DNA of 64,000 nucleotides. Source: Acidobacteriota bacterium. Its GTDB lineage: Bacteria; Acidobacteriota; Terriglobia; UBA7540. The stretch lies in NCBI GenBank assembly GCA_004298155.1, contig SCRD01000028.1:1-64000 (forward strand), written 5' to 3'. A program made the translations under genes and the position numbers. Of this stretch, positions 374 to 49,165 are shown one piece after another (position 1 is the stretch's first letter; every line of letters begins with the position of its first letter). Below the pieces are notes generated by a model that worked only from the letters and a program-made list of their open reading frames with translations, did not search any database and was not told the DNA's origin.

Positions 374-838
374 CTATTTTGCCGAGAGCGTGAACTGTTT
401 TCCCTTTTCCCCGACTTGAAAAATCAGGAGTTTTGCGGGCTTTGTGCTGCTCAGGTTGCGCAAAGAGCGGTGGATGTGCATCGGAGGCTCGTAAAAGAAC
501 TCGCCGGGTTTGTAGCTGCGGGGAGGGTCCGGGTCAACCTGGTTCTCGATCTCGCCGTCCAGCAGATAGGCAAAAACCGGCCCCGTATGCTTGTGCGGCT
601 GCGAGCTGCCACCGGGAGCGATGGTGAGTGTGAGCACCGTCACCTCCGAGTTGGGCATTTCAGCCAGAGGTTCCTCCATCAGCGTGTGGATTCCGATGGC
701 CCGCATGTGTTGCATGTGGCCCTGGGCGTCTTGTGAGATCTGTTGGGCCGCTGCGCGCAAGGGCGTGCCCGCGCGTTCCAAAAATAATCCGCCCAGTAAG
801 GCGGCAAGACTGCTGTTTACTTCGCGTCGAGCTATCAT
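374..838 (-). CDS. Cupin domain protein with N-terminal export-like segment
   Basis: A 154-residue protein. The chosen ATG (836-838) is preceded by AAAGGAG nine bases away; a longer frame upstream has no ribosome site. Residues 1-31 begin with MIARR and a hydrophobic Ala/Leu stretch that could be a signal or anchor. Residues about 65-140 form a single cupin barrel with HKH (His82, His84) in motif 1, GE at about 96, and HIH (His121, His123) in motif 2, enough to hold a mononuclear metal. No catalytic activity can be assigned. It lies about 100 bases downstream of the DUF3179 gene on the same strand and may be co-transcribed with it. Confidence 0.8.
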   Translation of the reverse strand: MIARREVNSSLAALLGGLFLERAGTPLRAAAQQISQDAQGHMQHMRAIGIHTLMEEPLAEMPNSEVTVLTLTIAPGGSSQPHKHTGPVFAYLLDGEIENQVDPDPPRSYKPGEFFYEPPMHIHRSLRNLSSTKPAKLLIFQVGEKGKQFTLSAK

Positions 839-937: not shown

Positions 938-2032
938 TTAACGTGCAGATCTTGAGCCGTACAGAAGGGTTTTTGGATGAAACTCCGACCAGGCGAACCA
1001 GAATTCCGGCTCCAGAATCAGCGGCTTTAACCGCGTCCCCTTCATGCGCCCGGCCAGGCATACGCCATAGGCATTCCACGTCGAATGGGTTTCCAGGTCG
1101 ATAAGTTTGTTGGCCTCAGAATCGACGGCGCGGAAATGCAGCCTGTTAGCGTCCGCTTCGGCCACGAACGCCGTGGTCGTGTCCGAAGCCGGCTGGTGCA
1201 CGACCAATACCGGCCTGCCTCCCACCGTGTCATTTACCACTCGAGTGCGCTGGAGCGCGGACATGGGGTACGCCTTCGCCTCTCCGCCCGCTTCAAGTCC
1301 CACGATCGTGTCTTTCGGATGAAGCCGGCGGTCGTGGCTGAAAGCGCCCTCCGGCGCGGCGCCGCGCATGCCTACTATTCCCTGGTTGAGGATCCTGTTC
1401 TCAACCGCCAACCGCTCCGCGTATCCAGGCAGTGGCTTCAGCGCGAGCGTATCGGGATACAGCTTGCGCCATTCGCTCCAGGTGGTGAGCAAAAAGGGAT
1501 ACAACGCCAGATGCGCGCCCTTGAGCGGCCCGGAGATGGCTTTGAGAGTTGACTGCTGCCAGCGGCTGCCTGTATCACGGTCTTTGAACACCTCGTTGCC
1601 GCCGATCAGACCTGCGGTATCGAAAACGAGAGCCCTACATCGCACGGCGGCCCTGAACACGAGGGCCGTGTTGCAGTACGATCACCATGTGACCGCGATG
1701 GGTCCATCCGCCATCCGGTCTTGAACAACGCCGTGCTGCGCCAGGATCGCCGCCGGATAAGCCTTGGCGGTTTTGCCGTCGGTCACTCCGATCAGCAGGT
1801 TGCTGGAAGAGAGAAAAATGGCTTGTGAAGCCGGGACGAATTGCGGGTGGTCGATGGTCACGTAGGGCAGATGCAGTTCTTTCGCCTGTGCCGTGATTCC
1901 CTGCGGCGCGAAAGTCATAACCATAGCCGCCAGCAGTACCGCCAGCCAACCGAGTTTGACACTCCTTATCGAGGACTCAACCTTGCCCAACACGCGATCT
2001 TCCGTTCCCGCCTTCTCTGGCGATTTGTGCAT
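938..2032 (-). CDS. DUF3179 family protein with an in-frame TGA, candidate selenoprotein
   Basis: Read through one TGA, this is a single 364-residue frame. Residues 1-48 have a basic N-terminus and a hydrophobic export or anchor segment (about 27-44). The rest is a DUF3179 domain on both sides of the TGA: residues ending IAVTW before it, then SYCNTALVF, GLIGGNEVF, DRDTGSRWQQ and TWSEWRKLYPDT. The TGA is codon 117 and gives W-TGA-S-Y-C-N, where family members normally read W-C-x-x-C-N. The stop therefore replaces the first cysteine of a CxxC pair. No other stop or frameshift is present and conservation resumes at once, which argues against decay. A strong hairpin follows the TGA. The biochemical role of DUF3179 is unknown to me. 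Alternatives are a recent nonsense mutation or a sequencing error. The start ATG at 2032 has no strong ribosome site. Confidence 0.75.
1643..1670 (-). promoter_or_regulatory. SECIS-like stem-loop directly after the in-frame TGA
   Basis: On the minus strand the RNA GGCCCU (1667-1662) pairs with AGGGCC (1654-1649) around a 7-base loop CGUGUUC. An outer CAC/GTG pair (1670-1668 with 1645-1643) extends it across a 3-base 3' bulge. The apical loop starts 20 bases after the TGA and has a G among its first two bases, both consistent with the general description of bacterial SECIS elements. The stem is GC-rich, and because the region is coding some pairing could be chance. Confidence 0.45.
1682..1684 (-). 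other. In-frame TGA at a conserved Cys position, possible selenocysteine codon
   Basis: TGA lies between IAVTW and SYCNT of the DUF3179 protein. The same frame is open for 116 codons before and 247 codons after. Recoding would create a U-x-x-C redox-type motif. TGA is an ordinary terminator elsewhere in the window (for example rhomboid, acyl-CoA dehydrogenase-neighbouring genes and cydA), so genome-wide reassignment is unlikely. Confidence 0.6.
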
Positions 2033-47917: not shown

Positions 47918-49165
47918 TCACGCCTTGTGGGCTTTGAACATTTCCTTCATGCGCGAGGCGATAAGGCGTTCCTCGCCCGGCTTCAGCATGAAGGAAGTCA
48001 TGGAGAGCGAGTGGCCGCCCGCTTCGCCCTGGACCATCACAGCGGGGTCGCCGCTCTGGAGGAACTCGACGGCCTGGGCCGTGGTCAGCGCCACCTTTTG
48101 CGCGTCCCACTCGATGCGCATGGTGGGCACGTGGTTGGCAATCGGCGGAACGTAGTCGCTGGTGGTCACTCCCTTGACGCTCCGAACTTGTTTCGAAACG
48201 TAATGCAGCCTGTCCCACCATTCCTGGGTCAGCTTTTCCTGGTCGTTGCTGAGGTAAACTTCCAGCGCCTTCCACATTCCCACAATCTCTTCCTTTCCCA
48301 CCTTCATCCCGCGTCCGATGGTGGGGGCGAAGGGGGCGGAATTAAAGCGTGCCGCACGGACCAGGTCTTTGCGGCCAAGCAGAAGTCCCGCGCACTGTGG
48401 GCCCCGCAACCCCTTGCCGCCGCTGAATGCGACCAGGTCGTATCCCATATTGTTGTAGTCCGTCAGGTGGGAGACGGGTGGCGTATCGGCTGCGCAGTCG
48501 TTAAAGGTTGGGACGTTGTACTGCCTGCCGAGTTTCGCCCAATCGGCCACCCTGATCTCGCTGGTTTCGTCCAGATAATTCACAAAGAACATGAGCGCCG
48601 TCTTCTCGGTCACTGCCTGCCGAACGTCGTCAGGGCTTTCCACCTCGACGATCTTCACGCCGCTCGCCAGAATCTGCGGATTGTATCCGTAGTGCTGGTG
48701 CTGGCTTTTCAGCATGAGGACTTCGCTCTTCATGCCGGTCAGGTCAGGCAACTGGCGGATCAAATCCTTGTTCTCCCCTGTCAGCGTTCCCGCTACTCCG
48801 CACATGATGGCCCCGGCCGCTCCGGAGGTGATGGTGGCGGAGTGGCCCGAAGGCAGATCCTTCAGCATTTTGCCAACCCGGTCGCCGGTGGCTTCAAGAA
48901 GATCGGGGATGCTGACGTAATGCTCGGCTGCCGCACTCATCGCGGCGACGGCTTCAGGCGGGATAAGCGATCCGCCAATAACGGTGATGGTTCCCCACGC
49001 GTTGATCATGGTCTTCACGCCGAGTTCCTTATAGATGTTGCCGGAAGCGGAGGCCGCAGCGGCAGCCTTCCTGCTGCGGGCCAGCGCGCTGCCGGGCCAC
49101 GCCGCCGCCACGACTCCAAGACTCGACAAAAAGTTGCGCCGGTTCCAAACCCCTGCTGTTCTCAT
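47918..49165 (-). CDS. Tat-exported SelA-like PLP-dependent protein
   Basis: A 415-residue fold-type I PLP enzyme related to selenocysteine synthase SelA and D-glucosaminate-6-phosphate ammonia-lyase. It has NAWGTITVIGGSLIPPEAVAAM, SGAAGAIMCGVAGTLTG, FNDCAADTPP and the expected PLP lysine Lys251 in FSGGKGLRGPQCAG. WNRRNFLSSLGVVAAAWPGSALA, split as WNRRNFLSSLG and SALA, is a Tat signal, so a folded PLP enzyme appears to be exported. Real SelA acts on tRNA in the cytoplasm, so this is not evidence of selenocysteine synthesis. ATG 49165 follows GGGAGGGAACAAAC. The M14 gene follows. Confidence 0.82.
   Translation of the reverse strand: MRTAGVWNRRNFLSSLGVVAAAWPGSALARSRKAAAAASASGNIYKELGVKTMINAWGTITVIGGSLIPPEAVAAMSAAAEHYVSIPDLLEATGDRVGKMLKDLPSGHSATITSGAAGAIMCGVAGTLTGENKDLIRQLPDLTGMKSEVLMLKSQHQHYGYNPQILASGVKIVEVESPDDVRQAVTEKTALMFFVNYLDETSEIRVADWAKLGRQYNVPTFNDCAADTPPVSHLTDYNNMGYDLVAFSGGKGLRGPQCAGLLLGRKDLVRAARFNSAPFAPTIGRGMKVGKEEIVGMWKALEVYLSNDQEKLTQEWWDRLHYVSKQVRSVKGVTTSDYVPPIANHVPTMRIEWDAQKVALTTAQAVEFLQSGDPAVMVQGEAGGHSLSMTSFMLKPGEERLIASRMKEMFKAHKA

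What the first reader, a model, noticed from the sequence alone, without database searches (positions are those of the whole stretch)
938..2032. DUF3179 gene with in-frame TGA at the CxxC cysteine: candidate selenoprotein
One 364-codon frame is interrupted only by TGA, exactly where the family has the first Cys of W-C-x-x-C-N. Conservation is intact on both sides, and the resulting U-S-Y-C is the classic Sec redox pattern. I have an unverified recollection that some DUF3179 proteins are annotated as possible selenoproteins. Nothing in this window encodes the Sec machinery.
Basis: partly seen in the sequence, partly recalled or inferred. Interest (0 to 1): 0.85.

Follow-up and report, generated by a model that had tools for sequence, protein, structure and literature searches.

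The report
Selenocysteine-containing DUF3179 protein of an acidobacterium
A soil acidobacterium reads an apparent stop codon in this probably exported redox protein as the rare amino acid selenocysteine, and many of its relatives do the same, which makes this a well-supported new member of a barely studied but already listed selenoprotein family.

Summary
On the minus strand (2032 to 938) a 364-codon DUF3179 frame (Pfam E=2e-63) is broken only by a TGA at 1684-1682, where homologues have the first Cys of CxxC. The selenocysteine reading is strongly supported. The genome has tRNA-Sec, selA, selB and a selD that itself carries an in-frame TGA. Of 104 non-redundant homologues, 60 have TGA at this same column and 44 have Cys. 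A hairpin whose apical loop starts 20 nt after the UGA meets the published bacterial SECIS rules. Its codons show the strongest synonymous constraint in the gene, and the same peak recurs in two other Sec clades. The hairpin has two compensated base pairs and is disrupted in the Cys sister clade. Among near relatives all 28 TGA-bearing genomes have selA, and the 8 scored as lacking it carry only Cys copies. DUF3179 is already listed as a selenoprotein family, so this is a new member of a known kind. Added here: occurrence across much of Acidobacteriota, repeated Sec/Cys exchange, an internal duplication in which only the first domain keeps the redox pair, and a tentative cluster-less Rieske-like fold. 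Most likely it is an extracytoplasmic thiol/selenol oxidoreductase; its substrate is unknown.

The parts
938..2032 (-). DUF3179 (PF11376) selenoprotein gene, 364 codons with one in-frame TGA (start codon upstream of the signal-like segment not fixed)
   Evidence: Translation with TGA=U; Pfam E=2e-63, residues 60-355
1682..1684 (-). In-frame TGA, residue 117, proposed Sec; column of the first Cys of CxxC
1673..1675 (-). TGC, residue 120, proposed resolving Cys (U-S-Y-C)
   Evidence: Nearly invariant in A1; replaced by A, T or V in 8 of 67 TGA rows
1648..1668 (-). SECIS hairpin CGGCCCU-CGUGUUC-AGGGCCG; stem begins 13 nt and the apical loop 20 nt after the UGA
   Evidence: synonymous freeze; compensated pairs
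1424..1864 (-). Domain 1 (residues 57-203), carries U117/C120; AlphaFold2 pLDDT 96; Rieske-like topology suggested
968..1360 (-). Domain 2 (about residues 225-355), homologous to domain 1 but without the redox pair
   Evidence: hhalign domain 1 vs 2: 99.7%, E=6e-27
1886..1954 (-). Hydrophobic N-terminal segment, signal-peptide-like (KLGWLAVLLAAMVMTFAPQGITAQA)
   Evidence: Sequence and helix 22-41 in the model; similar segments in homologues. No signal-peptide program was run.
374..838 (-). Downstream cupin-domain gene, same strand, next to DUF3179 also in many relatives of this clade
   Evidence: Pfam Cupin_2 E=1.7e-12; neighbour cluster

Best explanation
The gene encodes a DUF3179 selenoprotein. 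The ribosome reads UGA at 1684-1682 as selenocysteine, directed by SelB, tRNA-Sec and the hairpin just downstream. The product is most likely exported or membrane-anchored, and acts as a thiol/selenol oxidoreductase: Sec117 is the nucleophile, and Cys120, where present, resolves the selenenyl-sulfide. Shown by sequence: the TGA/Cys column, the machinery genes, the hairpin and its constraint. Inferred: Sec insertion itself, the redox role, the location. The substrate and electron donor are unknown.
For: Single TGA at the Cys column in 60 of 104 non-redundant homologues. selC, selA, selB, selD in the genome; selD has an in-frame TGA in the usual GUAAK context. Hairpin meets bSECIS rules (rules from PMC13188914): 32/34 TGA genes pass against 8/24 Cys genes. 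Codon identity beyond codon usage peaks exactly over the hairpin: 0.42 against a gene median of 0.06 and 95% quantile 0.17; CTC, GTG and AGG invariant in 27/27; the peak recurs in two further Sec clades and is absent in the Cys branch of one. Two compensated pairs, 99.4% of pair cells kept. Near relatives: 28/28 TGA genomes have selA, 8 genomes scored without selA have only Cys (Fisher P=1e-4). TGA is an ordinary stop in 14 of 31 long window ORFs, so the code is not reassigned. Sec position always Sec or Cys while the second Cys varies, as expected of a nucleophile.
Against: No protein-level or 75Se evidence. Synonymous-randomised controls pass the bSECIS rules often (61%), so passing the rules alone is weak evidence. 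A Cys-only clade (CTLCG) also shows a lesser codon-constraint peak here (0.29), unexplained. In the phylum survey 3 of 47 TGA genomes lacked a selA hit; two of them have selB (one full, one partial), one (G440, draft) has neither. The redox role rests on the motif and Sec, not on an assay.
Confidence: 0.94

Rival explanations
1. The TGA is a nonsense mutation or sequencing error in a decaying Cys gene.
For: The assembly is a draft of 29 contigs, and reads were not available.
Against: Independent genomes, including another species of the same genus (L053), carry TGA at the same codon. No other stop or frameshift; dN/dS well under 1 on both sides. Only TGA, never TAA or TAG, in strong full-length matches. 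Synonymous freeze over the hairpin.
Confidence: 0.02
2. The TGA is a true stop: two separate proteins (116 and 240 aa) are made, or TGA is read as a standard amino acid by code change or leaky read-through.
For: Both ORFs have possible start codons.
Against: The split would fall inside domain 1, in the middle of the family's most conserved motif. TGA is used as a stop by 14 of 31 long ORFs in the window. Homologues have Cys, never Trp or Gly, at this column.
Confidence: 0.03
3. It is a Sec protein, but the U-x-x-C site binds a metal or cofactor (for example as a remnant of a Rieske cluster site) instead of doing thiol chemistry.
For: Foldseek places the domain nearest Rieske ferredoxins and NirD. 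Conserved His100, Asp105, Asp151 and Trp158 in A1. Some family members lie beside cytochrome c genes.
Against: The Rieske motif CxH...CxxH is absent; the second Cys is replaced by A, T or V in some TGA rows; Sec is rarely a structural metal ligand (general knowledge).
Confidence: 0.15

Closest known systems
DUF3179 domain-containing selenoprotein (PF11376, UxxC/T), listed from the Olavius algarvensis symbiont survey (cited in PMC9312934 as ref. 63) and again in PMC13188914
   Same: Same Pfam family, Sec at the first position of UxxC/T; UxxT forms were also seen here
   Different: Different phylum from the deltaproteobacterial symbiont named in that source's title. Here a phylum-wide survey, SECIS constraint and a domain duplication are shown; UxxA and UxxV forms also seen
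Cys-containing DUF3179 proteins (including paralogue L038 in the same genome, and Thaumarchaeota L113/L114)
   Same: Same fold and motif with Cys in place of Sec
   Different: TGC instead of TGA. In the own-genome pair L059 (Sec) and L038 (Cys), the Cys copy still keeps the hairpin, which suggests a recent Sec to Cys change
Rieske ferredoxins and NirD (for example 5cxm, 4aiv, 3c0d)
   Same: Best fold matches for domain 1: probability 0.99-1.0, TM 0.40-0.45 by query, 0.50-0.62 by target
   Different: E-values 0.04-0.2, no sequence support (hhalign 1-5%), no cluster ligands; U-x-x-C instead

Membership tests
DUF3179 (PF11376) | Profile match over the curated cut-off along the domain | tested here: met
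   215 bits against cut-off 27, profile 7-292 of 292
Bacterial selenoprotein | In-frame UGA at a column that is Cys in homologues | tested here: met
Bacterial selenoprotein | Genome encodes SelA, SelB, SelD and tRNA-Sec | tested here: met
Bacterial selenoprotein | SECIS hairpin: 3-9 nt loop, 4-16 bp stem, G in the first two loop positions, 16-37 nt spacing, at most -7.5 kcal/mol | tested here: met
   7-nt loop CGUGUUC (a 4-nt loop in the MFE form), 7 bp, spacing 20, -12.1 kcal/mol; rules from PMC13188914
Bacterial selenoprotein | Selenium shown in the protein | not testable with these tools
   Needs 75Se labelling or mass spectrometry
Rieske / NirD fold | Significant fold match | tested here: inconclusive
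   High Foldseek probability but E 0.04 or more and TM under 0.5 by query length
Rieske [2Fe-2S] protein | CxH...CxxH cluster ligands | tested here: not met
   Motif absent; profile comparison gives no match

The most novel reading that the evidence does not exclude
DUF3179 is a tandem pair of Rieske-like domains that lack the iron-sulfur cluster, and in which a U-x-x-C selenol/thiol pair sits where the first cluster-ligand loop would be: a redox scaffold converted from metal to selenium chemistry, outside the cytoplasm, and widespread in Acidobacteriota.
Probability: 0.3. Interest if true: 0.65.

Novelty: new member of a known kind. Interest (0 to 1): 0.42.

Why it matters
DUF3179 appears in lists of selenoprotein families, but the held library contains no functional study of it. 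The result shows it to be common in one of the most abundant soil phyla, with repeated Sec/Cys exchange, so automatic annotation probably truncates or misses many of these genes. The own-genome Sec/Cys paralogue pair and the Sec and Cys sister clades offer natural comparisons for asking what Sec buys this protein. If the Rieske-like fold holds, it would link a metal redox fold to selenium chemistry.

Tried and rejected
Rfam scan of the window at gathering thresholds: no hits, so no SECIS family match. Profile comparison of each DUF3179 domain with Rieske alignments: no significant match. PDB sequence search with the A1 profile: nothing meaningful. NCBIfam: no family. A direct electron-transfer partnership with the Pyr_redox_2 gene beside L038 and L059 was considered but not adopted: that enzyme shows no obvious signal sequence while the DUF3179 proteins do. 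Plain shuffles gave only modest hairpin z-scores that depended on the stretch folded (-2.2 to -0.3), so the case rests on synonymous constraint and comparison instead. The 2007 Olavius paper is not in the library.

Full report
1. Observation. The gene runs on the minus strand from 2032 to 938. With TGA read through it encodes 364 residues with a single TGA, residue 117, at 1684-1682; otherwise it is two ORFs of 116 and 240 aa. Pfam finds only DUF3179, E=2e-63, across the TGA. The motif is TW-U-SYC-N. Selection is purifying on both sides: dN/dS 0.18-0.27 before and 0.14-0.24 after the TGA against three relatives.

2. Machinery. The window's genome (5.2 Mb, 97.6% complete) has a tRNA-Sec of 68.4 bits with anticodon TCA, SelB at 368 bits, SelA at 585 bits and SelD at 377 bits. 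The selD frame has a TGA in AAG-U-AAK, the usual Sec site of SelD. TGA also ends 14 of 31 long ORFs of the window, so it is not reassigned.

3. Homologues. A PF11376 search of 150 related genomes found 47 with the domain. In the aligned set every in-domain TGA falls on the column of the first Cys of CxxC. With 31 loci from named genomes (Acidobacteriota, Terriglobia, Acidiferrales, Bryobacterales, plus two Thaumarchaeota with Cys) and a phylum survey of 396 genomes, the set reached 67 TGA and 50 Cys rows, or 60 and 44 after removing near-copies. One short divergent row, L080, has Tyr at the column. The second motif residue is Cys in 59 of 67 TGA rows and A, T or V in the others. The tree needs 9 Sec/Cys changes, at least 7 by well-supported branches (quick method).

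4. Co-occurrence. Among near relatives 28 of 28 genomes with a TGA copy have selA, and 8 scored as lacking it have only Cys copies, Fisher P=1e-4. In the phylum survey it is 44 of 47 (P=0.025). Two of the three exceptions have selB, one full and one partial; the third, G440, a draft, remains unexplained. Genomes share ancestry, so these P values are not from independent samples.

5. SECIS. CGGCCCU-CGUGUUC-AGGGCCG, at 1668-1648, has its loop 20 nt after the UGA. By the published rules (PMC13188914), 32 of 34 TGA genes and 8 of 24 Cys genes have a qualifying hairpin; synonymous-randomised versions pass in 61% and 39%, so the rules alone are lax. The better test is codon choice. In 27 TGA genes of this clade, codon identity beyond codon usage peaks over the hairpin (0.42; gene median 0.06, 95% quantile 0.17), with Leu CTC, Val GTG and Arg AGG invariant. 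Two other Sec clades, with different hairpin sequences, peak at the same place; the Cys branch of one does not. Two pairs of the stem have compensated changes and 99.4% of pair cells are kept, against 57% or less when slid. In the Cys sister clade (L045, L049, L109) the sequence is altered. One distant Cys clade also peaks, less strongly (0.29), without a good hairpin; this is not explained.

6. Protein. The AlphaFold2 model (pLDDT 88) shows two repeats, and profile comparison shows they are homologous (99.7%, E=6e-27). The second domain has lost the pair (VVHQPASD). Domain 1 alone models at pLDDT 96, and its best PDB matches are Rieske ferredoxins and NirD, probability near 1 but E 0.04 or more and TM 0.40-0.45 by query. 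Sequence profiles do not support kinship with Rieske, so the fold is a lead only. An N-terminal hydrophobic segment and similar ones in relatives suggest an extracytoplasmic protein; another survey lists a DUF3179 protein as predicted membrane-located (PMC9230427).

7. Context. A cupin gene lies directly downstream, and the pairing recurs in this clade; part of that neighbour cluster consists of opposite-strand shadow ORFs, so the count of 28 loci is an upper bound. Another clade, including the own-genome pair L059 (Sec) and L038 (Cys), is followed by a Pyr_redox_2 reductase in that pair, and other members lie near cytochrome c. L038 and L059 are sisters on the tree, and L038 still has the hairpin, pointing to a recent Sec to Cys change.

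8. Known status. DUF3179 is listed as a selenoprotein family, UxxC/T, in PMC9312934 and PMC13188914. Only three held papers mention DUF3179 and none describes a function. So this is a new member of a known kind. What is shown is the genomic case for Sec; Sec insertion, redox role and location are inferred.

Noticed in passing
L022 (G000:C17:121050-121973): The genome's selD has an in-frame TGA in the Sec-type active-site context (AAGUAAK), so SelD is probably itself a selenoprotein.
   Followed up: partly
L019 (G000:C17:390132-390575): A SelA-like PLP-fold gene has an in-frame TGA in SHL-U-EYTQMGFDLVQFSGGKG. Trp is the likely residue there (from memory), so it may be a nonsense change and not Sec.
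   Followed up: no
L038 and L059 (G000:C24 and C8): Two sister DUF3179 paralogues in one genome, one Cys and one Sec, both followed by a pyridine nucleotide-disulfide reductase gene; the Cys copy keeps the SECIS-like hairpin.
   Followed up: partly
L028-L037, L064, L081, L082, L131, L138, L143, L144: A Cys-only DUF3179 clade shows raised synonymous constraint at the place where Sec clades have the SECIS (0.29, top of its gene) without a good hairpin.
   Followed up: no
L124, L126, L135, L137, L141, L145: TGA-type DUF3179 proteins in which the second Cys is Thr, Val or Ala (UxxT, UxxV, UxxA), i.e. single-Sec forms.
   Followed up: no
window 48227-48667: A weak SelA-like match (38.8 bits, under the cut-off) in a 529-aa open frame, probably another PLP-fold enzyme.
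   Followed up: no
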